From a virus, in the IMG/VR virus record IMGVR_UViG_3300013372_001340, positions 1-42,574 of that record: a stretch of DNA of 42,574 nucleotides. The stretch is one strand, 5' to 3'. Positions within the stretch are counted from its first letter, which is position 1. The number at the start of each line of letters is the position of its first letter. Of this stretch, positions 1 through 42,574 are shown one piece after another. The notes under the pieces were generated by a model. That model made no database searches, was not told where the DNA came from, and worked only from the letters and a program-made list of their open reading frames with translations. Both the position numbers and the translations under genes were made by a program.

Positions 1-3000
1 ATATCCAATTACTCTATTTATCACCGAATCTGTGACTATTTCGTTTATTCCTATGAATATTTTATTTTTAGCGTGTATGTAAGTCGATCTTCCTTTACAT
101 GTAGTATCATTAAACAGTAAAGCGTTCCTAAATATTTCTATATTATCCCACATTCTCTGTAGACTTCGATTATAAACCCAATTTTGGACATATTCTTCTT
201 TATCTATTAAAACGTCATTCAAATCCCAATAATAATCAGGGAAATCGGATATAAGTCTTTTCCTGTTCAATAAATCCACTATTTTTATTATCTTCTCTTT
301 ACTAGATATTAAAATGTTTCTAAATTCGTCTTGTGTGACAGATTTAACATCTTCAATACAAGATATTGTCCCGTCTAAAATATATGCTGCAAATACACCA
401 TTTTTAAAAAACTTTAAAACGTTATTGCCCACTATTAGATATATAGAAAGTTTATTATAACTAGAACTTAGTCTAGTAGGTGTTCCAGTAGAGTATTTTG
501 AAAAATTATAACTTGATATATAAACACCTTTAGATGTATAAATGCGAATTTCTTTGGAATTTAATACATGAATATTATTATCATCGTCCACAGTTAAACT
601 AATAGGAGGATTTTCTGAAAATTCCGAATTTGATATAGTCCTTAACCAAACACCACGATTAGTAAACATTTTAATGCAACTATTTCCTGTATCTGCAACC
701 AAAATATTGTCGTTCAAATCTATTGCCATATCAGATGGTGAACGGAATCTGCTATTAGCATTTAATCCACCTATTCCACCCCACACAATATTGGTTATCC
801 AATGATCAGTTGATGTATTAGATGGGGTGTATTCTAAACTTATTATCTTGCATAGTGTATTATCCAAAACGAATAATGTGCCTTCACTGTCTAATGCAAT
901 AGATTGAATGTTTTTAAACTTACTGAATCTTTTATCGTAATAACTTTTAACATTTACTTCTGTGGCTCCAAAATCCGACGATAACACTCTAATCTGTGTT
1001 TTAGTCGCAGAATATATAACATTTTCTTCGCTTGCCAAATCTACTGGATAGCAGTTAGAGTTGATCCCACTATTACAATCCACGTTTTTATAAAGCTCGT
1101 TAATGAAGCCATCTTGTGGTTCATTCAAATTCCATTGTCCTTCTACATTGCAAACTTGACTTACTATTACTTCCCCATCGCTAGACTCGCAATGTCCATC
1201 GTTCTCCCACTTCTTTCTTAAAACTCCTCCAGTCTTCATGTTTTTCCAAGTTGCGCCAGCTACAGTAGATGATTTCAATGCTGACCACTTCCAATTTAAA
1301 CAATGTAAACCTAAACAGTTTTGATTCCTGTTTATATTATCACAATTAAAATTTTCATATGGAGCACATGAAAATAAATATCCTTCCACTAAATCACCAT
1401 CAGAACAGGTGAAAGCATCCCATGACGTTTTATCCCCATTTTCACACGTTAGATCGTCCCATGTTTTATACACACATAAGTTAATAGGTGCAATTATAGC
1501 ATCCGAGATCGAATAAGACTGTCCATACCATCCGAAAAATTCGTCATAATCAGTATCTAATATTAGTGACCTAGTATATAGATATTTTAAATTGTCGAAC
1601 ATTTTCTCTATTACTGAATTTATATTATCTTCAACAACCCATTCATTAGGAGATATATATGGAGTAGCGGAAAACGGAACACTCAATGGTTCTCTAGCAG
1701 ACCTTAGTTCGCCAACCTCAACATCTGTAACATCATATTTGTCCACAACTTTTATTATGTTAGAGTAAGTAAAAACCACTGTTTTATCATCATTATTAAT
1801 AACAGAAATTTTTAAGCTTTTGTCTCCTATCGAATTGTAAGTAGTCTTATAAATATTCGAAGTTGGTATAGTGACATCATTGACACTAATACTTTTGACT
1901 TCGGATAAATCTAAACCAACAAACTCAAAAGTGACATAAGAATTTAATAACACGTATCTGTTAGGAGTATACAAAGTTAAATATGGGTAAGTCAAAACAT
2001 CGAAAGTTCCAGAATTTTTTATTGTCACAATACGAGGAACCCAATCTCCTCCGGGTGTTGGTATACTACAATTAACTTCAGCAACAACTTCTACTGTGAT
2101 ATTGGTATCATTATAGAAATCACATGTATATAAAGCTGTCCCAATTCCTTCATATTTCAAATTATATGGAAATGTTTGATTGTTATCATCGTCATATATT
2201 GTCAATGAAGGGGTTTCCCACCCATTATCACTATTAATAACCCAATTTATGGACGTTAAGGACTTCACTACAGGAGAAGTTACAGTAATAGATGTAGGAG
2301 ATTCATATCTCCATTTTTTCGGATATGCGCCAGTTAATGCTACTTGACCCCAAGTGAACGGCTTGTCAGTGAAATCGTTGTTAAGGTTGTTTACGTCTAC
2401 ATTATCCCATGTCCATATAGTATCATATAGACTATAGCATTTGTTCAGGCTAGAATCAACACCACCACTTAAAGCCAAAATAAACGATGCAGTAAACAGT
2501 GAATTGGAATAACTATTGTTAGCATCTCTATCAACAGTCAGATATATTTTATCGCCACCGCTGCCAGTATCGAAACTATATTGTATTTCACTGTCATATG
2601 TTAAAATTTTCACACTTTCAAACAGATATGTATTGGAGGAGTATTCTTGGCCATATGGAGTTACAGTAGAAACATAATGTGAATAATAAGTCTTATCTCC
2701 AGTGATGTCATCTCTATACACATTCGGGGAATTTATGGGGAAATCAGCATTTACTATTTTCAGTCCGATGGGAACATTATAAACATCTCCGAAAGAGTAA
2801 GAAGGGACATTTACAGTTGAATAGTTAGAGTTGACTTCTATAACATTCAAACTGCTAACTACCAATGATTGTGTTTCTTCTGTTGCGGATAGAGAAGTTA
2901 AGCTAAGACTCCAAGCGTAAGAGCAACCTGCTGGCAAAGCAGATAAAGCAGATAAATTTATAGTTTCTGTATGCCCTTCACCGATGAAAGAAACGCCTGT

Positions 3001-3423
3001 GCTAGATAAGCGATAATTACTTGAAGTCAAAGTTTCTTGTTGGTAGCCTAACGTAAATATATTCGTGGGAAAAGCCTCGAAAGTTCCAGCAGATAAGAAA
3101 TATCTAACGAATGATGCTGATATCTCACTGCTTACTAATGTAGTATTTGTGGATAACGTTATTACTATACTACAAAGCACTGGAGAGTTACATATAAAAG
3201 ATTCAGAAGATGATAATGTTGAAAGAGGAAGAACTGTTTTGGTTGAAATGTCGTGATTTAAAACATACCACAAGTCATATGGAGTGGAAGTGGACGAAAG
3301 CGTGAAAAGATACGAATATGCATTAATATTCACAGTATATGCAGTATTAGAGGTCAATCTATAAAATACTGTGGTATCCTCAGAAAGTTCATTGTTAGCT
3401 TTTATGTATATATCTATAGCCAT
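1..3423 (-). CDS. Giant NHL/propeller structural protein, C-terminus cut by window edge
   Basis: An open frame of 1141 codons runs without a stop from ATG at 3423 to base 1, so the C-terminus lies outside the window. The first ~500 residues are Ser/Thr/Val-rich and look like tandem beta-sandwich (Ig/PKD-like) modules. Two Cys/Trp motifs (C..W.W...TW...KKW) lie at residues ~329-371 and ~703-739. Residues ~790-1050 form an NHL-type beta-propeller; the clearest blade contains SPSDMAIDLNDNILVADTG. The visible end (YYWDLND, YNRSLQRMWDN) weakly resembles the C-terminal part of the 998-aa protein encoded at 13216-16212. It is the last visible gene of the baseplate/fibre block, 9 bases after the 816-aa gene, with a TTAAATAATA box 3 bases before ATG. 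I infer a virion-surface or baseplate-peripheral role; no specific homologue is recognised. Confidence 0.8.
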   Translation of the reverse strand, partial: MAIDIYIKANNELSEDTTVFYRLTSNTAYTVNINAYSYLFTLSSTSTPYDLWYVLNHDISTKTVLPLSTLSSSESFICNSPVLCSIVITLSTNTTLVSSEISASFVRYFLSAGTFEAFPTNIFTLGYQQETLTSSNYRLSSTGVSFIGEGHTETINLSALSALPAGCSYAWSLSLTSLSATEETQSLVVSSLNVIEVNSNYSTVNVPSYSFGDVYNVPIGLKIVNADFPINSPNVYRDDITGDKTYYSHYVSTVTPYGQEYSSNTYLFESVKILTYDSEIQYSFDTGSGGDKIYLTVDRDANNSYSNSLFTASFILALSGGVDSSLNKCYSLYDTIWTWDNVDVNNLNNDFTDKPFTWGQVALTGAYPKKWRYESPTSITVTSPVVKSLTSINWVINSDNGWETPSLTIYDDDNNQTFPYNLKYEGIGTALYTCDFYNDTNITVEVVAEVNCSIPTPGGDWVPRIVTIKNSGTFDVLTYPYLTLYTPNRYVLLNSYVTFEFVGLDLSEVKSISVNDVTIPTSNIYKTTYNSIGDKSLKISVINNDDKTVVFTYSNIIKVVDKYDVTDVEVGELRSAREPLSVPFSATPYISPNEWVVEDNINSVIEKMFDNLKYLYTRSLILDTDYDEFFGWYGQSYSISDAIIAPINLCVYKTWDDLTCENGDKTSWDAFTCSDGDLVEGYLFSCAPYENFNCDNINRNQNCLGLHCLNWKWSALKSSTVAGATWKNMKTGGVLRKKWENDGHCESSDGEVIVSQVCNVEGQWNLNEPQDGFINELYKNVDCNSGINSNCYPVDLASEENVIYSATKTQIRVLSSDFGATEVNVKSYYDKRFSKFKNIQSIALDSEGTLFVLDNTLCKIISLEYTPSNTSTDHWITNIVWGGIGGLNANSRFRSPSDMAIDLNDNILVADTGNSCIKMFTNRGVWLRTISNSEFSENPPISLTVDDDNNIHVLNSKEIRIYTSKGVYISSYNFSKYSTGTPTRLSSSYNKLSIYLIVGNNVLKFFKNGVFAAYILDGTISCIEDVKSVTQDEFRNILISSKEKIIKIVDLLNRKRLISDFPDYYWDLNDVLIDKEEYVQNWVYNRSLQRMWDNIEIFRNALLFNDTTCKGRSTYIHAKNKIFIGINEIVTDSVINRVIGY

Positions 3424-3426
3424 TGG

Positions 3427-3436
3427 TATTATTTAA
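3427..3436 (-). promoter_or_regulatory. Late-promoter-like box before the 1141-codon gene
   Basis: Minus-strand TTAAATAATA ends 3 bases before the ATG and overlaps the stop codon of the upstream gene. It differs from T4-type TATAAATA at the second base. Confidence 0.4.
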
Positions 3437-5883
3437 TCGATCCATTCGACTTCCAACAATTCTACATGTGATGGATTCGACAAATGTAATGCATCTTTAA
3501 CGTTTTCTTCTATTAATGCTCTAACATTATCATCTACAATATTAGACCCTGATATTTTTATTTTATAAAATGGACTTTTAGAGCCGGGAAGTTTATGTTT
3601 GAAAAACCTTTCAATTCTTTCAATATATTGTAAATCCGATGTTGGAACATCCCAAATTATATCATCCGACAGTAACACTTCCCTCACAAACAACATCTGA
3701 AAACTTTCAGCCAAAGCATAATCATACAATCTTACATTATTTATGTATCCATTAAATGTAAGATTGTTACTTGCGATTTCAGCATTCATGTTTTCTATTT
3801 TACCATTTGGTGTTCCTATATATAGGTCATTATTAACAGTTTTTATGTCGTAATTTCTAGGGATAACCCTTTCACCTAGTTTATAAGAATCTACATAAAG
3901 TTTCATTACGTTATTTTCGATAGTAGCAACAATAAGATGCCAATCTTTATCATGAACTTCATAAAACGGAGCGGAAATTTTATGATTTATCACCTCACCA
4001 TATCTCGAAAACGTTTCTTTATAATCCGTTAAAGTATTTAATTTTGTTGCAGATACTTTAAAATGTATTTGAGGTTTATTGTCATATTTCACCTTATTGA
4101 AAACTCTTTTCCATTCATATCCTGTAAAATCGCCCGAAAACGCAAAAGACAAATTCAGATTTTTAATTTGATCTGGAAATTCTAAAGAGTTTATAGACGT
4201 ATTCAGATTTACAACCTTTAATATATCTCCATCTAACGACAGTTTATATAAATTTTTATCTTTATACCCTGAATGTATCAATACCGCAACCCATTTATCA
4301 CTGTTAGTTTTTCTATCATATTCACAAAGAAAACTCAAGTTTTTACTTACAATATTTTCTAAATTTGCCACCCCTATATCAAAGGTTGATATTATTTCTC
4401 TGGTTATCGTATTTATTTTTATTATGTTCGTAAATCCGTTTAAAACCCATAGAACGTTTTCAGGGTCTACGACAATTGACTGAACAGATGAAATACCAGC
4501 AAATAAAGTATTTTCATCTCCATAATATAAATAACCATCAGTCCCAACCAACCATTTATTATTTGTGAAATCATATTTAATGTCTTTACACACCTCAGAA
4601 ACCATAACACCATTTAAGTTGAAGCATGTCTTTAAATTATTAGTATATATCAATCCAGTATCATAATTCAATAAATAGAGATTTTGATCCAATGTATAAG
4701 TCCCATAATCTGTTAAAACTATTACATTATCACCAGAAAGAGTTAATATTTTAGGTGTTGCCGTCAATCCATAATAAAACATCACATCACCCAAATGATT
4801 ATACTTTGTAACAGATTTTGAAATATCAGCGGAATCTATCATGAAGATTTCAAAATCTCCATTTATAGCTACCTGTGTTGGGTTACTGTTAATAAGTGGC
4901 GATATTTGTGTCCCACGATCATTATATACGTTAAATTCCGAATTGAATCCTATAATATGACCAAAATAAATTTCAGGGACAACGAAAAACGGATAATGTT
5001 TGAGATTATCGTAAAATATACCATATCCACTTTCGTTAGTAAAGTTTCCAATCAATTGTGACGAACTAGCTTTGTCCCAATTATTATGTTTCACGTTTAA
5101 ACTGATAGTGAATTCTTTCTTCAAATCTTTAACCGCATCAGATTTCACAGAAACTTTTAAATTTCCAGTATTATCAAGATTTAATGCTCCGTTAATAGGA
5201 TTGTAAACATCATACACGTATTTCTCATTGAAGTTATTAAATGCAATAGAGTTATTAAAAAAAGATGTGTCTTTTGGATAACCTGCCCATTGTTTAATCT
5301 CCAATTTCAGTCTGTTGTAATCATTTCCAGCAAAAGTTTTCACTATCTCTTTTGCTGTTTTCTCCCCAATATGATAATATGAATATAAAACACCAGCTTC
5401 TAAAGTCAAAGAAGAAGGAACATCAATAAAAAGATTTTCACTGTCTATGTAATCGGTGAAAAGTGCTTCACCTCTTAACGCTTCTTCATATAATATTCTT
5501 CCGGGATTGTAATACCTGTCCAACCATATAGGCTCATCTTCATTATTTGGGGCATACAACCAACTACATAATAAAGTGCCGTCCACAAGCCCTGTAGAGT
5601 TACCAAATGGGGTGTTTGTTCCATATCCTCCATTGTTTTTACACATTCTATCGGCCATTATAGGTATTGGCCCTGATGTAGCACCACTATATATCAAATT
5701 GGTGTCATTTAAAGCAACCGTATCAGAAAAATATGGATAGTGGAAATGTGTCAAACTGTCTTTTTTAAACTTGACTTCTGTTGTTCCAGATTCATACCCC
5801 AAATGGATTTTATCAGAACCATCAATTTGATTATGTCCTGTAAATATTTTATAATAATCTCGATGTTTCAAATTTTCTATCAT
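3433..5883 (-). CDS. LamG plus beta-propeller tail/adhesin protein
   Basis: 816 aa. Residues ~605-730 match the C-terminal half of a LamG/concanavalin-like jelly roll: DKDWHLIVATIENNVMKLYV, then LYIGTPNG, then FNGYINNVRLYDYALAE. The N-terminal half of the same fold (EFTISLNVKHNNW, GYGIFYDN) seems to lie at ~258-315. Between them, residues ~340-590 look like propeller blades (SIVVDPENVLWVLNGFTNII). The last ~60 residues are a separate mixed domain. LamG domains commonly bind glycans, so a tail-fibre or adhesin role is likely but inferred. Start and upstream stop overlap as ATGA (5880-5883), implying translational coupling. Confidence 0.75.
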   Translation of the reverse strand: MIENLKHRDYYKIFTGHNQIDGSDKIHLGYESGTTEVKFKKDSLTHFHYPYFSDTVALNDTNLIYSGATSGPIPIMADRMCKNNGGYGTNTPFGNSTGLVDGTLLCSWLYAPNNEDEPIWLDRYYNPGRILYEEALRGEALFTDYIDSENLFIDVPSSLTLEAGVLYSYYHIGEKTAKEIVKTFAGNDYNRLKLEIKQWAGYPKDTSFFNNSIAFNNFNEKYVYDVYNPINGALNLDNTGNLKVSVKSDAVKDLKKEFTISLNVKHNNWDKASSSQLIGNFTNESGYGIFYDNLKHYPFFVVPEIYFGHIIGFNSEFNVYNDRGTQISPLINSNPTQVAINGDFEIFMIDSADISKSVTKYNHLGDVMFYYGLTATPKILTLSGDNVIVLTDYGTYTLDQNLYLLNYDTGLIYTNNLKTCFNLNGVMVSEVCKDIKYDFTNNKWLVGTDGYLYYGDENTLFAGISSVQSIVVDPENVLWVLNGFTNIIKINTITREIISTFDIGVANLENIVSKNLSFLCEYDRKTNSDKWVAVLIHSGYKDKNLYKLSLDGDILKVVNLNTSINSLEFPDQIKNLNLSFAFSGDFTGYEWKRVFNKVKYDNKPQIHFKVSATKLNTLTDYKETFSRYGEVINHKISAPFYEVHDKDWHLIVATIENNVMKLYVDSYKLGERVIPRNYDIKTVNNDLYIGTPNGKIENMNAEIASNNLTFNGYINNVRLYDYALAESFQMLFVREVLLSDDIIWDVPTSDLQYIERIERFFKHKLPGSKSPFYKIKISGSNIVDDNVRALIEENVKDALHLSNPSHVELLEVEWID

Positions 5884-30011: not shown

Positions 30012-32678
30012 TTATGATTGATATATTGATGATAGGAATTCGCTTCTTATTCCCTGTATAGCATTACTTATTGATTGTAATGCCTGTGCATCATTTTTTT
30101 GTTGTGGTTGTTGAGTCATAGTAGGATATACATTCACTCCTTGTTTGGAAGAATTTTCCCCTATTATACCCATTATCTTAAACATTGCTTCCGCTAGTTT
30201 AACTATTGATTTATTTGTATCTCCTGTATTGCTTTCTATGTCCCCCAATAGTTTAGAACCATCTAAAGTGGGAGACGGTTTAGATTCTTGTGTAAATGGT
30301 GCTGCAACAACTCCATCCGTTTTATCGAGTTGGAATATTTTCCCACTAGTTTGTGACGATACTATTAATCCGCCTTTAGGATCGATCATAGCATCACCAT
30401 GATGAGTGACTTCAGGAGATTTAATACCTGCTTTTACTCTTTCCGCTATTGACTTTTCTTGTTCACTTGCAAATGCTTTTTTCTCTTCGTCGGATTGTTC
30501 TGGTCGTTGATTGTCATTATCTAATGCTGATATTATAGAATCTGGTAATATCCTTCTAGCAAGCCATTGAAGATTGGTGTCTTTCCACCAAGCTCTAGCC
30601 TTTTCCAGTATCATATCTTTCAATTTCGCAAAAATTCCTTTTGGTTTTGGTGGAAGTGCTTGTCCGCTCTCTTGTTCATTGTCGTCCGAAAAGAACGATA
30701 TGATATTTCTCAATATAGGAACAGACATTCCCATTGTTTTCAGCCCCTTTAAAACATCTCCATCGTATATTTGACCTATTCCTTTTAGTAGTCCACCCAA
30801 AATAGGAACTTTCATAATTTTTTCCTTAATCCATTTACCTAGAGATGCAAACATTCCGCCGATACTTGTTATTCCTCCTGCAACGCCTTTAGCAACACCT
30901 CCAACTTCTTCATCCCCTAATAAAGCACCTAGAAGCTCAAAAGGTGGGAATATATAAGCCATCTGCTTCAAACCCTTTAAAAAGTTTCCTTGTGAGAATT
31001 CTCCAACTGCTTTCAATGCTGGCCCTATTATAGGAAGCTGTAAAACTAATTTCCCAATCTTTTCAGAGGCCCACGCACCTAGAGATTTAATTAGTCCCCA
31101 AACGCTTCCAAGAGCACCTTGAACCCCTTTAGTAGCAGGAACGTCTTCATCCCCTAATAAAGCACCTACAAGCTCAAAAATTGGGACTATATAAGCCATC
31201 TGCTTCAAACCCTTTAAAAAGTTTCCTTGTGAGAACTCTCCAATTGATCTAATTAATGGCCCAATAACTGGCAATGCGACTATCACATCACCAAACTTTT
31301 CACTTGCCCATTCACCTAGAGATTTAATCATGCCCCAAACGCTTCCAAGAGCACCTTGAACAGCAGGAGTAGCAGGAACGTCTTCATCGCCCAATAAAGC
31401 ACCTAGAAGCTCTAATGGTGGTAATATATAGGCCATCTGCTTCAACCCCTTTAAAAAGTTTCCTTGCGAGAATTCTCCAATCGACCTTGTTAATGGCCCT
31501 ATTACTGGCAATTGGACTATCACATCACCAAACTTTTTGCCCATCCATTTTCCAGCATCCTTAATCCAGCCCCAAATCATGGAGCCTTTGCCTTTCCCTC
31601 CTGCATCTGGTGTTCCTCCAGCTTTATAATCCAAAAACGCATTTAATGCATCTATCCCTAGAGATATCCCAAGTCCAATCAAATTCCCTCCTCCAAGCAA
31701 ATTTACCGCACCGGAAAGCAAGTCCAACACTCCACCCAACATATCACCCTTCATGAATCTAGATATTGCAAACCCTATACTGATAATCGTTCCCACAAAC
31801 GGAATAAACTTTGCAACCTTGGCAAATGCTTTTGCTATCCATCCACCCATTTTAGCGAATATTCCCTTTCCTGCACCCTTTCCAATTATTTCTACACCCT
31901 CCTTAGCTGCATCTTTTCCAGCAATGCCAAAGAAACTAGAAATACCTCTCAACATTCCACCAGCAAATTTTTCCAATCCATTAATAGCCATAGCCCCCAC
32001 TTTATGAAGCAGTGATAATCCACCTTGAACACCAAATCTGCTTACAAGTTTTAGCAAACCTTTGAATGGCCCATCGGTTTTTAACCCCTCATATAACGCA
32101 AATAAACCTCCTGCCAATAAAGCCAATCCTCCGAACATCATTTTAAATACCGTAGAACCCTTTTTAGGTTCTTCGTCTTTTTCCTTTTCCGTTTTATCTT
32201 TTCTTTTTGTTACGCTTTCCCCTATTATTTTATGCAACACCTTTTGAGCATTTGGAGATAACCCATCAATTATAGTTAATGCTGGTTTATTTTCTTCCTC
32301 TAGAGTTTTTTTCTCCCCGTCTTTAGTCTTATTAGACGCAAAAAATTGTCCGACATATGACAATAACTCCTTGTTATCTGGTTCTTTCTTATCTACAACT
32401 TTTTCTTTCTTATCTTCTTTTTTGCCTTTATCTTTAGATGTTAATCCTATATCCTCTAAAAGAGTTTTTAACATTCCTTTAGCTGTGGAATCTTTGGATA
32501 AACCCTTAATACCATCTGCCAATGTTTCAGATTTATCTTTAGAACCAGTAGATGCTTTTATAGCTAATATCTTCTTCCCTATGGAATTAGACAAATTTTG
32601 CATGAAACTATCAGCCAACCCTTCAAAAAATGAAGGAGGTAGATATTTTGACACATCAAGTGGAACAGAATCAGCCAT
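30012..32678 (-). CDS. Tape measure protein with tandem repeats
   Basis: 888 aa, the longest protein of the tail core. The N-terminal ~175 residues are charged and Lys/Glu-rich. A long hydrophobic, Gly/Ala-rich stretch begins at ~178 (MMFGGLALLAGGLFALYEGL) with several possible membrane-active segments up to ~355. Residues 365-603 hold three repeats of 79-80 aa (RSIGEFSQGNFLKGLKQMAY in each), then a degenerate fourth to ~670. The C-terminus has HHGDAMIDPKGGLIVSS and a coiled helix. Tape measure proteins set tail length and are ejected early in infection. It sits between the gp26-like genes and the gp48/54-like gene, as expected. Confidence 0.8.
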   Translation of the reverse strand: MADSVPLDVSKYLPPSFFEGLADSFMQNLSNSIGKKILAIKASTGSKDKSETLADGIKGLSKDSTAKGMLKTLLEDIGLTSKDKGKKEDKKEKVVDKKEPDNKELLSYVGQFFASNKTKDGEKKTLEEENKPALTIIDGLSPNAQKVLHKIIGESVTKRKDKTEKEKDEEPKKGSTVFKMMFGGLALLAGGLFALYEGLKTDGPFKGLLKLVSRFGVQGGLSLLHKVGAMAINGLEKFAGGMLRGISSFFGIAGKDAAKEGVEIIGKGAGKGIFAKMGGWIAKAFAKVAKFIPFVGTIISIGFAISRFMKGDMLGGVLDLLSGAVNLLGGGNLIGLGISLGIDALNAFLDYKAGGTPDAGGKGKGSMIWGWIKDAGKWMGKKFGDVIVQLPVIGPLTRSIGEFSQGNFLKGLKQMAYILPPLELLGALLGDEDVPATPAVQGALGSVWGMIKSLGEWASEKFGDVIVALPVIGPLIRSIGEFSQGNFLKGLKQMAYIVPIFELVGALLGDEDVPATKGVQGALGSVWGLIKSLGAWASEKIGKLVLQLPIIGPALKAVGEFSQGNFLKGLKQMAYIFPPFELLGALLGDEEVGGVAKGVAGGITSIGGMFASLGKWIKEKIMKVPILGGLLKGIGQIYDGDVLKGLKTMGMSVPILRNIISFFSDDNEQESGQALPPKPKGIFAKLKDMILEKARAWWKDTNLQWLARRILPDSIISALDNDNQRPEQSDEEKKAFASEQEKSIAERVKAGIKSPEVTHHGDAMIDPKGGLIVSSQTSGKIFQLDKTDGVVAAPFTQESKPSPTLDGSKLLGDIESNTGDTNKSIVKLAEAMFKIMGIIGENSSKQGVNVYPTMTQQPQQKNDAQALQSISNAIQGIRSEFLSSIYQS
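30873..31586 (-). repeat. Three tandem 237-240-bp repeats in the tape measure gene
   Basis: Units at 31586-31347 (80 codons), 31346-31110 (79 codons) and 31109 to ~30873. Matching DNA (AAGCCATCTGCTTCAA-type stretch) recurs at exact 237-base spacing, ending at 30960, 31197 and 31434. Identity is highest over GEFSQGNFLKGLKQMAY. A diverged fourth unit follows to about 30670. Confidence 0.85.
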
Positions 32679-38154: not shown

Positions 38155-38730
38155 TTATGTTATGGCTGGATTTATCAGTTTAAAATCTAATTTATTGAAT
38201 TGGAAAGTCGCATTAGATTCAATCCATGTGCTATCTCTGTAGTTATATGTTATCCCTCCTAGTCCTGTTATTGTGGCATTATAATAAGTCCATGATGCGA
38301 CTCTTTGATTATACTCATTGACTGCAAAAATTGAAAATATTGTTTGATATTCAGGCAATCCCATCTTAGAGGTAGGACTATCACCGCCATATATGCTACC
38401 ATGAGTAGTATTCAACACATTTAACCAATTCCAAAGTATCCAATAATTGAGAAACGTGTTATCCACTACAAAATTTAACGTTAAAGGAGCATAATTGGGT
38501 CTAGTATAACTAGTTACATTTAATGTTTGTCCAGCAAAAGGAACAGCTATTGTAGGAATTATAACATCTGGAACGATAGAACCGAAAACTGCGAATTCGA
38601 TTGGTGAAGTTCCTTGAGTTACAATAGGAGTGTAAACCCCTCCTCTCAAAGCATTAGGCAAATCTAGAACCAATATAAACTTGTCTTTACTGGCTTTATT
38701 TAAAACTGATTGTTGAGTAGGGTTAGACAT
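38155..38730 (-). CDS. Tail-tube-like / tail terminator-region protein
   Basis: 191 aa. The beta-rich pattern FILVLDLPNALR, FAVFGSIVPDVIIPTIAVPF, TSYTRPNYAPLTLNFVVDN, LNYWILWNWLNVLN, SWTYYNATITGLGGITYNYR matches tube-like proteins of the gp19 group (V-P-D-V/I strand, P-L-T-x-x-F-V-V-D, then the W..W.N helix). Its position between the terminase and the sheath also fits. In many T4-like marine phages a second tube-like gene lies here; a tail terminator (gp3/gp15-like) role cannot be excluded. No promoter box as clear as its neighbours. Confidence 0.6.
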   Translation of the reverse strand: MSNPTQQSVLNKASKDKFILVLDLPNALRGGVYTPIVTQGTSPIEFAVFGSIVPDVIIPTIAVPFAGQTLNVTSYTRPNYAPLTLNFVVDNTFLNYWILWNWLNVLNTTHGSIYGGDSPTSKMGLPEYQTIFSIFAVNEYNQRVASWTYYNATITGLGGITYNYRDSTWIESNATFQFNKLDFKLINPAIT

Positions 38731-38745
38731 TAATGATATTTAACC

Positions 38746-41013
38746 TTATGGGCGGAATATAGTATATCCTAAATCTGTTAAATCCTCCATGTTAAGATCG
38801 TCTTCTCCGTATATGTCCAAATTACCGAGTAAAGGTTCATACTTCTTTTGAACTTTTTCGTTGGATGGTATTACCACATTTCCACCTATTAAATCTTTCA
38901 ATTCATATAAACTCTCATCATTAGGGAAATATTCACCTCTAGTTATCTTCAAAGGCTTCTGTTGCTCGTCTGTCTCTTCTATGTTAAAATATTGCTGACA
39001 AACATCAGGGTCTAATGTAAACAATCCCCAAACTAATCCCATGACATAATCATCAAAAAATTTTTCGCCTTTTTTCCGATATGTTCCATTTGGATATCTA
39101 ATAAAAGTCTCTAATTCAGATATTGTTTGAGAATCGTATATTTTAACCACTTGTAAGAAATTGATCCAATATCTCAAATTGCTAACAGCATTAAACCTAA
39201 GATTGTTATGGCTAAAAATACCCAAATTTTTGGTGGATTTATATTCTCCAGTCTGAGTCAATTTACTATAACTTACCAATTTCTCGTAACTCAGTTCATG
39301 TGATAGTGCATCCAGCGTTTGAGCACCACAGTTATTTCTTTCAATCAACAATGGAGGATTACCCCAAGAAGAACAAAGGTTTATTAATCGATTTGCGAAA
39401 TGATATGGTTCTATCGTGTTTGAACCATAAACAGCAACTTGAGTTATATTAGATAAGTCTGTCACATCCAAAACCTGCGCTGTAGATGAAGCCCTCCCTA
39501 CGCCTTCGCCAACATCGCAACCCACAACATATAAATTATCCTTCTTAGGCATTTCATAAACTCTGTAAGAACCATCATCAGACTTCCATATAGGTGCTTT
39601 TTTATTAACCTTAAAAGCCTCTAAAACATCATAACCTACTGCGGCTGTTGCGGAATCCAAAAATACATTACCAAACTCTTGAGAAAAAGACTCTTCCGAT
39701 CCTAAAGTGTTAACCATGTCATTCTTCCACTTCTCGTTTCTTCCCGGAACATCCCACCAATCAATTCTTTCATTGTTCCACCCATTATCTCCCTTTTCAG
39801 CACCATTATACATCTCATAGAACTTGTTTCCTATTCCATTAGGTGTGCTAACCATGAAGATTTTCGATTTTTTACCAGATGATATAGTAGGAATAACAGA
39901 CTTCCAGAAATCATCTAAAAGGTGTGTATTATGATTTAAAATACCATTAGCATAATATCTGTGATTCTTTTCAACATCTACTATATCATATACATAATCC
40001 TCATCATCAATTTCTTCAACACTAATAACTTTATCTATTCCATTTTCTGTTATAATGTTCGAACCTAAAGAATTTACAGCGTGTATAATATCCCCCGATT
40101 CTAATATAAATCCATGTTTTTCAGAAACTATTATGTTTTTGCCGCACCCTAAAAGCACTTTCACCAATTTCTTTTTATCGTATTTCGAAACACCTTTAAA
40201 ATCTGACCATCCACAATCCGTCCACACTTCCAAATTTTCATTTGTTTCATAACATATTAAATCGTTTTCAATACCTGAAACATTAGTATTGAACTTAAAC
40301 ATTTCTCCGATCTTTTTCTCATATTCTTTTTTAGTAAATACATCTCTCAATTTCACAACAGATTCCCCATGTAAACATTCTATATGTGCAGCCTCATCTA
40401 TAAACAAACAATTTATTGACTGGCCACGAGCCGCTGTGGATGATGTAGTGCTAACTTTGATAGAACTTCCATTAGCTAACGCCATTCCTGTTTTTCCCCA
40501 CTCTTTTACTCCGGGTTTTAGGTAATTCGGAAGTAATTCATATGCTAGTCTTATTCTACTAAAAATTGATATTGCTGTGTCTTCTTTGTTCGCAACTATC
40601 AACATGCTTTGATCTGAAGAGAAACAGCAAATCCATAATGCGAAAATAGTAGCCAATGTGGAATTATGACTTAATATTCCATTCGTATAAAAAGTATGAT
40701 TTTCTGAATCTATAGACAAATCATACATATTCTCAGGAGGACAGTCTAATTTAACCACACTATTCACCTTCTCAATTCCATTTTCAGTTATTATACCATC
40801 ACCAACTTTTAAGTCTTTGACATATATCTCAATACCATCCTCTCCAATCACTATATGTTCATCAGCACACTCTAAAAAGAAATTTGAGGTTTCTATCCTC
40901 CAAACATCAAATGGCACTGTTTTATGCACTTCTTGAATGTCCACCCACCCTTCATCTGTCCATACTTCATAATCTTCAACTTTTTTAGAGTCTATAAACT
41001 TTTCTGCTTCCAT
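38746..41013 (-). CDS. terL: Large terminase C-terminal half, with split-intein C-fragment and a mini-intein
   Basis: 755 aa. Residues 1-117 are the C-terminal fragment of a split intein ending GILSHN. Residues 118-212 are extein, from the Ser of Walker A (STLATIFALW) to Walker B (CLFIDEAAHIE, D206/E207). Residues 213-362 are a second intein. Residues 363-755 are extein: SGKKSKIFMVSTPNG (coupling motif), then the RNase H-like nuclease with D500 (GCDVGEG), E558 (LLIERNNCG) and D654/D655 (FDDYVMGLVW). The gp17-type enzyme packages DNA with ATP and cuts concatemers. About 488 extein residues are here; the N-terminal ATPase part is encoded upstream (42428-42574 and beyond). Function needs trans-splicing at Walker A and cis-splicing after Walker B. 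Confidence 0.93.
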   Translation of the reverse strand: MEAEKFIDSKKVEDYEVWTDEGWVDIQEVHKTVPFDVWRIETSNFFLECADEHIVIGEDGIEIYVKDLKVGDGIITENGIEKVNSVVKLDCPPENMYDLSIDSENHTFYTNGILSHNSTLATIFALWICCFSSDQSMLIVANKEDTAISIFSRIRLAYELLPNYLKPGVKEWGKTGMALANGSSIKVSTTSSTAARGQSINCLFIDEAAHIECLHGESVVKLRDVFTKKEYEKKIGEMFKFNTNVSGIENDLICYETNENLEVWTDCGWSDFKGVSKYDKKKLVKVLLGCGKNIIVSEKHGFILESGDIIHAVNSLGSNIITENGIDKVISVEEIDDEDYVYDIVDVEKNHRYYANGILNHNTHLLDDFWKSVIPTISSGKKSKIFMVSTPNGIGNKFYEMYNGAEKGDNGWNNERIDWWDVPGRNEKWKNDMVNTLGSEESFSQEFGNVFLDSATAAVGYDVLEAFKVNKKAPIWKSDDGSYRVYEMPKKDNLYVVGCDVGEGVGRASSTAQVLDVTDLSNITQVAVYGSNTIEPYHFANRLINLCSSWGNPPLLIERNNCGAQTLDALSHELSYEKLVSYSKLTQTGEYKSTKNLGIFSHNNLRFNAVSNLRYWINFLQVVKIYDSQTISELETFIRYPNGTYRKKGEKFFDDYVMGLVWGLFTLDPDVCQQYFNIEETDEQQKPLKITRGEYFPNDESLYELKDLIGGNVVIPSNEKVQKKYEPLLGNLDIYGEDDLNMEDLTDLGYTIFRP
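39928..40377 (-). other. Contiguous mini-intein in TerL after Walker B
   Basis: 150 residues (213-362). Begins C213 LHGESVVKL (block A) and ends NGILNHN (block G), with Thr363 as +1 residue. Block B-like IIVSEKHGFI; block F YVYDIVDVEKNHRYYANGI. No endonuclease domain. Removing it joins IDEAAHIE to THLLDDFWKSVIP, which matches uninterrupted gp17-type terminases. Confidence 0.88.
40663..41013 (-). other. C-terminal fragment of atypically split TerL intein
   Basis: 117 residues starting at ATG 41013. It holds block B (LECADEHIVIG), block F (MYDLSIDSENHTFYTNGI) and block G (LSHN), with Ser118 as +1. The split lies before block B, so most of the intein is in the C-fragment, as in the AceL-TerL intein (about 25 + 104 residues). 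It closely resembles the downstream mini-intein. Confidence 0.88.
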
Positions 41014-41024
41014 ATAGGTATAAC

Positions 41025-42290
41025 TTATCCATTCCTTATGAAATTAATGCAGTCTTCTAAAACTTTCTGCTTGTTTTTATAGTAATATAATTCTTTAACT
41101 ACTAAAACATCAAAATCAGGTAAAGATTTTTTAATTTCGTTTAAACGGTTAATATCTTTATCCACTGTATAATCCACTTGTTTATTTGCAACACTATGCC
41201 AATATGCGCCATCGAATTCTATGCCTCTATTCACATCTTTAACATAAAAATCTAAAAACCTATAAGATTTTTCCGTCTCTATTTTATATTCATAATTTTT
41301 TCCGCTGTCGTCTCTCTCCCCATTCATTTTAGTGGCAAAGAATATTTCAGAATAGTCGTTTTTAATATTTTCGTATATATCCCAAAAAAGCTTTTGAGAT
41401 ACTAAAGAATATTTCAATCTAGGAAAAGATTTCAGCCATTTTTCTGTCATGTTTTTCCTTTTTATGATTGCCTCATCAATACTGCATTTCTCACGATTGA
41501 TTATACTATCCACAGAAGTCATGTTTTGATGTGAACTGACTAAAAGTTTAGATTGTTCTTCCGTATTTCCCTTTCGCATCCAGTATTCTTTTTTAGATGG
41601 CGTGTTTCCTTCTCTAAGGAGGGTTTCACTTATTTTATCACCGCAGCAATGTCTATTATCAATTTTATTATAATAGTTTACGTTGCAATTTGTGTTGTGA
41701 CAAAAATTGTCATATCCTTGAATTATCCCTTTGAATTTCATGTCTTTACCGCACCATAAACACATTCCGTCCTTTTCTCCGCTTTTAACATGTTTGTTGT
41801 AATATAATATAGGATCATGTTCACTGTTAACGTGCTTAGATAAATGTAATGTGTTGCCATATACGTTACCACATTCTAAACATTCGTGTTTATAATCTTC
41901 TTCCGTTAAAACACCTCCACGTATTTTACAGGATTGATTATAATGTAATACATTACATGCTCCCCTTTTGACCATATCAAAAGGAACATTATTACAACAA
42001 GAGGGTAAACAACATTTCGATTTTCGTTCAAAATATTTTCGGTAAATTTCCCTCTTATATTCAATATCCCCTACTTTATATATAGCTGCACTAACTGCCT
42101 TCCATGTATCAAAATACGAATTCAACTCTTCAACAAATGTGTATTTTTTCAATTCCTCTAGTGACTGATTAACATTTTTATTATTTTTCTTGTATACGCT
42201 TTTAACCAAAGACCCTGCAAACCTCCCATACGTTTTATGTTGATGTTCAGTAATACAAATTCCAGTAACTTTACAGTATAGATTTTTCAT
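41025..42290 (-). CDS. Vsr-like (EDxHD) homing endonuclease between the terL halves
   Basis: 421 aa. Residues ~90-205 hold zinc-finger-like clusters: CCLPSCC, C137-x2-C140 with H153/H158, C177-x2-C180 with C197 and C202, likely DNA-binding. The C-terminal ~85 residues are a Vsr-like nuclease: FLDFYVKDVNRGIEFDGAYW followed by His, with E358, D360 and H365. This matches the endonuclease family found inside fractured split-intein genes (I-Bth0305I-type, EDxHD). It probably cuts terL alleles lacking the intein at the Walker A site, spreading the whole unit. It begins 41 bases after the TerL-N stop and ends 11 bases before the TerL-C start. All three read in one direction. Confidence 0.85.
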   Translation of the reverse strand: MKNLYCKVTGICITEHQHKTYGRFAGSLVKSVYKKNNKNVNQSLEELKKYTFVEELNSYFDTWKAVSAAIYKVGDIEYKREIYRKYFERKSKCCLPSCCNNVPFDMVKRGACNVLHYNQSCKIRGGVLTEEDYKHECLECGNVYGNTLHLSKHVNSEHDPILYYNKHVKSGEKDGMCLWCGKDMKFKGIIQGYDNFCHNTNCNVNYYNKIDNRHCCGDKISETLLREGNTPSKKEYWMRKGNTEEQSKLLVSSHQNMTSVDSIINREKCSIDEAIIKRKNMTEKWLKSFPRLKYSLVSQKLFWDIYENIKNDYSEIFFATKMNGERDDSGKNYEYKIETEKSYRFLDFYVKDVNRGIEFDGAYWHSVANKQVDYTVDKDINRLNEIKKSLPDFDVLVVKELYYYKNKQKVLEDCINFIRNG

Positions 42291-42331
42291 ATAACTATAC
42301 TTATCAAACTTTAAGGAATTGTCTAACCTGT

Positions 42332-42574
42332 CTAAGATTTAATCGAACTATAAAACTCTCCGACAGTGATATTTTTAGATTCCAGTGTTTTTTTATTCCT
42401 GATTCGAACAATTGTATCATCTTTAAGTCATTTGCCTGCTTGTCTAGAACCCAATAAAACGACGAACCTATTGTTCTGCAAGCTCTTTAAAACCCTTTTT
42501 TGGGCTGGATAAAGTTCGATGGTTTCTTTACCTCTATCTAGATTTACAATCGTGAAATGATTTTCTGCGAAGTG
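42332..42574 (-). CDS. terL: Large terminase N-terminal half end plus split-intein N-fragment (in-frame TGA at intein residue 1)
   Basis: The frame is open from the window edge. The 48 visible residues include HFAENHFTIVNLDRG, ELYPAQKRVLKSLQNNRFVV and LLGSRQAGK, the gp17-type adenine-binding region and Walker A up to GK. The next codon, 42430-42428, is TGA. The frame then continues for 31 codons as an intein N-fragment (LKDDTIVRIRNKKTLE ... ITVGEFYSS) to TAG at 42334-42332. The missing Ser of GK[ST] is the +1 residue of the C-half. As read, translation would stop at TGA exactly at the intein Cys1 position. It may be mutation, sequencing error or recoding. The start lies beyond the window. Confidence 0.8.
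42335..42430 (-). other. N-terminal fragment of the split TerL intein
   Basis: 32 codons counting TGA as residue 1. DDTIV matches the block A GDTxV pattern, and KNITVGEFY matches the following block N2-like strand. Length is comparable with the 25-residue N-fragment of AceL-TerL. The first codon should encode Cys (or Ser) but reads TGA, one base away from TGT/TGC. Confidence 0.8.

What the first reader, a model, noticed from the sequence alone, without database searches (positions are those of the whole stretch)
38746..42574. Fractured terminase gene: atypically split intein with a Vsr-like homing endonuclease between the halves
Seen: the TerL frame stops inside Walker A (GSRQAGK), is followed by an intein N-fragment, then a free 421-aa EDxHD nuclease gene, then an intein C-fragment (GILSHN) that resumes TerL at STLATIF. 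Known: Dassa et al. (2009) described such fractured genes, with new split inteins and a Vsr-like endonuclease family, in metagenomes, and AceL-TerL is an atypically split terminase intein. Inferred: the unit is a homing cassette in a whole T4-like phage context, giving the arrangement together with its late operon and a second intein in the same protein. The split is 32 + 117 residues, so the short N-fragment carries only block A.
Basis: partly seen in the sequence, partly recalled or inferred. Interest (0 to 1): 0.88.

Follow-up and report, generated by a model that had tools for sequence, protein, structure and literature searches.

The report
Phage terminase gene split by intein
In this T4-like phage the gene for the DNA-packaging motor is broken in two at its ATP-binding loop, with a mobile DNA-cutting gene between the halves, and the two protein pieces are predicted to splice back together; the arrangement belongs to a known kind but is widespread at this site, although in this contig the key splicing cysteine codon reads as a stop, probably a contig-end error.

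Summary
On the minus strand, TerL breaks inside Walker A (GSRQAGK|), followed by an intein N-fragment, a free 421-aa endonuclease gene, and a C-fragment (GILSHN|STLATIF) that resumes TerL; TerL also carries a second, contiguous intein.

As recorded, this allele cannot make its intein N-fragment. A second contig (L006) with the same allele has TGC. The window has two private changes 23 nt apart near its end, and all 35 relatives checked have Cys1, so contig-end error or a defective copy is likeliest.

The joined fragments match one intein fold (VidaL, CatC). The nuclease domain folds like I-Bth0305I and Vsr. The cassette recurs at the same Walker A codon in dozens of phage contigs. Related TerL genes show empty, contiguous, split-without-endonuclease and endonuclease-split states, some in isolated phages.

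The window matches one relative 99.9% over 30.5 kb downstream, yet carries a 52%-identical endonuclease and different N-fragment. That is a cassette swap or an assembly join within a 180-nt shared stretch. This is a Dassa-type fractured gene at a TerL site different from GOS-TerL's, so a new member of a known kind.

The parts
42431..42574 (-). TerL N-extein (last 48 residues, cut by the contig end), ending in Walker A GSRQAGK
   Evidence: Translation; full 108-aa N-extein in L006
42428..42430 (-). TGA codon at intein position 1 (Cys1 in all relatives with a readable N-fragment); third base A here, C in L006
42335..42427 (-). Remainder of intein N-fragment LKDDTIVRIRNKKTLESKNITVGEFYSSIKS, then TAG
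   Evidence: homologous N-fragments in L002, L008, L031, L035
41025..42290 (-). Free-standing endonuclease gene (421 aa): Cys/His-rich N-terminal part with a C2H2-type zinc finger (~133-160) and C-terminal Vsr-like/EDxHD nuclease (~285-421)
40663..41013 (-). Intein C-fragment, 117 aa, ending ...TNGILSHN
   Evidence: TIGR01443; profile match to VidaL 6vgv and CatC 6dsl
38746..40662 (-). TerL C-extein (STLATIF... to stop), interrupted by the second intein
   Evidence: Terminase_6N above gathering score; relatives
39928..40377 (-). Second, contiguous mini-intein (150 aa, CLHGES...GILNHN|THLL) near Walker B; absent in L005, L008
   Evidence: PF14890 37-39 bits versus cut-off 35.8; empty-site alleles
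40897..41076 (-). 180-nt stretch identical between the L006-type and L002-type genomes; site of recombination or assembly join

Best explanation
This is a fractured terL gene of a T4-like phage. A split intein inserted between Lys and Ser of Walker A is broken at an atypical position after about 32 residues, and a free-standing Vsr-like (EDxHD-type) homing endonuclease gene sits in the break. In functional copies (L006 type), N-half TerL+IntN and IntC+TerL are translated separately, the intein halves associate, Cys1 and Ser+1 carry out trans-splicing, and the P-loop GK|S is restored; the second intein splices in cis, giving a TerL of about 596 aa. The endonuclease most likely cuts terL alleles that lack the cassette, so that repair copies IntN+HEG, sometimes without replacing IntC. 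Shown: anatomy, homology, recurrence, and allele states. Inferred: trans-splicing, cleavage, homing. In this contig the Cys1 codon is TGA. I take this as a contig-end sequence error or a defective individual, not the normal state.
For: ORFs and motifs. The same allele with Cys1 in an independent contig, L006. The cassette at the same codon in families A-E and further loci, with Cys1 in all 35 loci of the context set where the RQxGK motif and N-fragment were readable. IntN+IntC profile spans VidaL (E 6.6e-13) and CatC. Nuclease-domain model pLDDT 87, with I-Bth0305I (prob 0.99, TMt 0.66) and Vsr among the PDB matches. 35 of 42 downstream ORFs match a terminase PHROG. Intein-free Walker A TerL in more than 70 loci. 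Contiguous or split states in isolates. HEG A versus B 52% and IntN 34%, but IntC 96-100% and C-extein 100%; window equals L002 except 24 substitutions and one N-containing gap in 30.5 kb.
Against: As written, the window's N-half stops before the intein, so this copy should not splice. No experiment was done. The Pfam intein model scores the joined fragments below its cut-off (19.8 versus 35.8 bits), and the Pfam nuclease model is also below cut-off. The PDB fold E-value is weak (0.019). The window's HEG/IntC junction lies in a 180-nt stretch shared by two genotypes and could be a chimera.
Confidence: 0.85

Rival explanations
1. The TGA is a real mutation: this genome is a defective or decaying copy whose TerL is dead unless helped by a co-infecting phage.
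For: The sequence as given; a second non-synonymous private change 23 nt away.
Against: All other intein, HEG and TerL parts are intact and near-identical to functional alleles; two private changes near the contig end versus 24 substitutions in 30.5 kb elsewhere fit low coverage better.
Confidence: 0.25
2. UGA at position 1 is recoded (selenocysteine or Cys/Trp readthrough), making splicing conditional.
For: The codon sits exactly at the nucleophile position; one TGC>TGA change.
Against: No stem-loop behind the UGA (MFE -3.3 kcal/mol over 60 nt); 35 relatives have Cys; TGA serves as a normal stop with ATGA overlap at 5880 and long ORFs are free of internal TGA; no other contig carries the TGA form.
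Confidence: 0.02
3. The window is an assembly chimera: an L006-type upstream part joined to an L002-type downstream part inside 180 nt of shared sequence.
For: Window equals L006 from 42427 to 40897 and L002 from 41076 down to 39680 without a mismatch.
Against: Real recombination (homing) would give the same pattern; both parent types are separately complete fractured genes, so the arrangement itself does not depend on this.
Confidence: 0.4
4. The two TerL halves work as separate subunits without splicing, or an RNA intron is involved.
For: Essential genes split by endonuclease genes into working separate peptides are known (cited in PMC10448857); ICP1 terL has an RNA intron (same paper).
Against: The break separates Lys and Ser of the P-loop; intein blocks A, B, F, G and terminal HN are conserved; no Rfam match in 38700-42574.
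Confidence: 0.03

Closest known systems
Dassa et al. 2009 'fractured genes' (NAR 37:2560; paper not held, cited through PMC11766414, PMC10448857, PMC6892783)
   Same: Gene broken by a split intein with a free-standing Vsr-like endonuclease between the halves
   Different: Here the gene is terL at Walker A, with several endonuclease alleles at one codon and contiguous or uninterrupted relatives; I could not read the paper to check whether this site was listed
AceL-TerL and GOS-TerL atypically split inteins
   Same: Terminase host, short IntN (25-37 aa), large IntC, split after the first helix (PMC13014065, PMC11766414)
   Different: GOS-TerL uses Ser1/Cys+1 (PMC10189870); this uses Cys1/Ser+1 in the P-loop. 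GOS-like inteins in L117 and Vibrio VP-1 lie at a different TerL site (SHN|CEFLG, SHN|CSFLG)
VidaL (PDB 6vgv) and Cat (6dsl) split inteins
   Same: Best PDB sequence matches of the joined fragments; atypical split
   Different: VidaL IntN is 16 aa (S1 split, PMC13014065) versus 32 aa here
I-Bth0305I / EDxHD homing endonucleases
   Same: Nuclease-domain fold and invariant D, E, H pattern
   Different: Different N-terminal region with a C2H2-type finger and several further conserved Cys residues; lies between split-intein halves, not in a group I intron
Contiguous TerL Walker A mini-inteins of Ackermannviridae and Campylobacter phages
   Same: Same site, IntC 38-52% identical
   Different: One ORF, no endonuclease between the parts

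Membership tests
Fractured gene with split intein (Dassa type) | Host gene in two ORFs broken at an intein insertion site | tested here: met
   empty-site orthologues
Fractured gene with split intein (Dassa type) | Free-standing endonuclease ORF between the halves | tested here: met
Fractured gene with split intein (Dassa type) | Two fragments together make one intein | tested here: met
   Joined profile spans VidaL 16-150, E 6.6e-13
Class 1 intein | Nucleophile Cys1/Ser1 on the N-fragment | tested here: not met
   TGA in the window; TGC in L006 and Cys in all other relatives read
Class 1 intein | Block B His, block F, C-terminal HN and +1 Ser/Thr/Cys | tested here: met
   ADEH, ENHTFYTNGILSHN, +1 Ser
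Class 1 intein | Protein trans-splicing activity | not testable with these tools
   Needs co-expression and mass spectrometry
GOS/AceL TerL intein allele | Same insertion site and nucleophile pair | tested here: not met
   Cys1/Ser+1 at Walker A versus Ser1/Cys+1 for GOS; site differs in L117 and VP-1. AceL sequence itself not compared
EDxHD / Vsr-like homing endonuclease | Vsr-like catalytic fold | tested here: met
   pLDDT 87 model; 3r3p prob 0.99, TMt 0.66; 1vsr rank 8; E-values modest
EDxHD / Vsr-like homing endonuclease | Conserved catalytic Asp/Glu/His | tested here: inconclusive
   Invariant D63, E74, H81 and E116 in 47 sequences, not mapped residue by residue to 3r3p; Pfam MTES_1575 below cut-off
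EDxHD / Vsr-like homing endonuclease | Site-specific cleavage of cassette-free allele | not testable with these tools
   Needs cleavage assay
T4-type TerL | Terminase ATPase domain | tested here: met
   PF03237 27.2 bits versus cut-off 22

The most novel reading that the evidence does not exclude
The mobile unit is IntN plus endonuclease, not the whole intein: homing between already occupied terL alleles replaces the 5' block, from the intein insertion site to the endonuclease's 3' end, and leaves IntC in place, so one IntC splices with strongly diverged IntN partners (34% identical) in one phage species.
Probability: 0.35. Interest if true: 0.65.

Novelty: new member of a known kind. Interest (0 to 1): 0.5.

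Why it matters
One codon of one essential phage gene is found empty, with a contiguous intein (mini or LAGLIDADG-bearing), split without an endonuclease, and split by Vsr-like or T5orf172-like endonuclease genes, partly in cultured phages. That makes the origin of split inteins and the mobility of fractured genes directly testable. It also supplies a family of atypically split inteins with short N-fragments, useful as protein-ligation tools. Near-identical phages with different IntN partners for the same IntC bear on split-intein cross-reactivity.

Tried and rejected
Recoding of UGA: no downstream hairpin, TGA used as a stop, no other TGA copy. Intron: no Rfam hit. Own promoter or RNA hairpin before the HEG: promoter-like sites not above shuffles and only weak hairpins, dropped. 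T4 late-promoter octamers: near my own chance estimate. Full-length HEG model from 4 sequences: pLDDT 43, not used. Sequence search for I-Bth0305I in PDB with the nuclease profile: nothing; only the fold search found it. Scan with the truncated TerL paralogue: beyond the three close contigs the hits carrying the RQxGK motif were almost all full-length intein-free TerL, useful only as an empty-site count. Dassa 2009 and the VidaL paper are not held, so their lists of insertion sites were not checked.

Full report
Observation. The TerL frame reads ...NNRFVVLLGSRQAGK and stops; a free ORF of 421 aa lies at 42290-41025; the next ORF (41013-38746) begins with a 117-aa intein C-fragment ending TNGILSHN and continues as TerL, STLATIFALW. 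A second, contiguous intein of 150 aa follows the Walker B region and passes the Pfam intein cut-off.

The stop codon is not just 'inside Walker A'. It is a TGA at intein position 1, followed in frame by LKDDTIVRIRNKKTLESKNITVGEFYSSIKS and TAG. The contig L006 (IMGVR_UViG_3300017784_003688) carries the same allele, with TGC there. Window and L006 are identical over the first 1.6 kb except A>G at 42451 and C>A at 42428. An exact-pattern scan of the viral collection with any base at that position found only the TGC copy (the window's own record may be left out). In the context set, all 35 loci where the RQxGK motif and the N-fragment could be read have Cys there. Of 23 long ORFs in the window, 20 end in TAA, 2 in TAG and 1 in TGA, so TGA is an ordinary stop. 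No structure follows the UGA. Two private changes 23 nt apart near the contig end, against 24 substitutions in 30.5 kb elsewhere, point to a sequence error or a defective individual.

One intein. The joined N- and C-fragments of alleles A, B and C, aligned with the other inteins of these terL genes, give a profile that matches VidaL (6vgv, E 6.6e-13, spanning both fragments) and CatC (6dsl, 4.6e-12). Block B His, block F, terminal HN and +1 Ser are present. The split position, 32 residues in and ending at a predicted first helix, corresponds to the S2 position described for AceL and GOS TerL (PMC13014065). No RNA intron was found.

The endonuclease. Its N-terminal part is rich in conserved Cys/His, with a C2H2-type finger at about 133-160. 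A 47-sequence alignment of the C-terminal 137 residues has invariant D63, E74, H81 and E116 and gives a confident model (pLDDT 87, pTM 0.81). Its PDB neighbours include the I-Bth0305I catalytic domain (probability 0.99, TM-score 0.66 by target) and E. coli Vsr; among viral models it matches a 'putative VSR endonuclease' of Aeromonas phage Aes123. E-values are modest, so this is Vsr-like/EDxHD by fold, not by a sequence cut-off.

Recurrence. Scans with the endonuclease alignments found the same order (TerL N-half+IntN, endonuclease, IntC+TerL) at the same Walker A codon in families A (window, L006), B (L002, L004, L005), C (L008, L009, L030), D (L031-33), E (L034-45) and many more. Of 42 downstream ORFs tested, 35 match a terminase-large-subunit PHROG, 2 match SbcC and 1 a clamp loader. 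The sample was chosen by similarity to this nuclease domain, so the share is not unbiased.

States of the site. Empty Walker A TerL is common. A contiguous LAGLIDADG-bearing intein beginning with Ala occupies it in L013. Contiguous mini-inteins occupy it in Ackermannviridae (Kuja, VP-1, CRW-SP2, A221) and in Campylobacter CP20 and CP21. Delftia PhiW-14 is split there with no endonuclease, a 48-nt gap and an unannotated N-half. The isolate Campylobacter F379 is split there by a T5orf172-like gene. Other TerL sites are also fractured: Walker B in L010/L012 with a GIY-YIG gene, and the GOS-like site in L117 and VP-1. L004 holds three inteins in one TerL.

Mobility. Window and L002 are 99.9% identical over 10.6-41.08 kb, share IntC at 100%, and share the N-extein apart from the window's private change, yet their endonucleases are 52% and their IntN 34% identical. 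Trees agree at larger scale (E+H, F+G, A-D), which indicates long co-inheritance, but within A-B the endonuclease is replaced while IntC is not. The block edges are the intein insertion site and the last 15 codons of the endonuclease. Because L006 and L002 share 180 identical nt there, the window's own junction may be an assembly join. The A/B difference itself does not rest on the window, since L006 (A) and L005 (B) have nearly the same IntC (99%).

Verdict. A real fractured terL, new member of a known kind. Trans-splicing, cleavage and homing are inferred. The window's TGA should be checked in reads before this copy is used for anything.

Noticed in passing
L006:5419-6117, L002:3538-4236, L004:2098-2796 (+); L056:3409-4092 (+): A truncated, intein-free TerL ATPase paralogue of about 230 aa with intact Walker A and Walker B but no nuclease domain. 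It lies just upstream of the fractured terL in the window's clade and between endonuclease and IntC in L056. Absent in L008.
   Followed up: partly
L004:4561-7233 plus upstream N-half: One TerL with three inteins: split at Walker A, contiguous before Walker B (QSIN|C), contiguous after it (HIE|C).
   Followed up: partly
L010:5665-8886 and L012: TerL fractured at Walker B with a GIY-YIG endonuclease; its C-fragment ends NKQ|C rather than HN.
   Followed up: partly
L131 (Delftia PhiW-14) 1973-2440 and 2489-4246: Unannotated N-half shows gp17 is a natural split-intein terL with no endonuclease between the halves.
   Followed up: partly
L126 (Campylobacter phage CP21) 991-5277: terL in two annotated ORFs with a T5orf172 endonuclease gene between them; about three intein-like stretches in one TerL, although the genes are annotated only as terminase.
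   Followed up: partly
window:19248-23120: B12-type (NrdJ-like) ribonucleotide reductase with a contiguous intein carrying NUMOD3/HNH-like motifs.
   Followed up: partly
window:30012-32678: 888-aa protein with repeated segments of about 80 residues (..IGEFSQGNFLKGLKQMAYI..); DNA repeats near 30903-31547 align out of register with the relative G001, whose assembly has an N run there.
   Followed up: no
L103 and L121: Related Vsr-like endonuclease with the same type of IntC (SHN|ST) in an SbcC-like (gp46-type) ATPase gene, again just behind a P-loop-like site.
   Followed up: no
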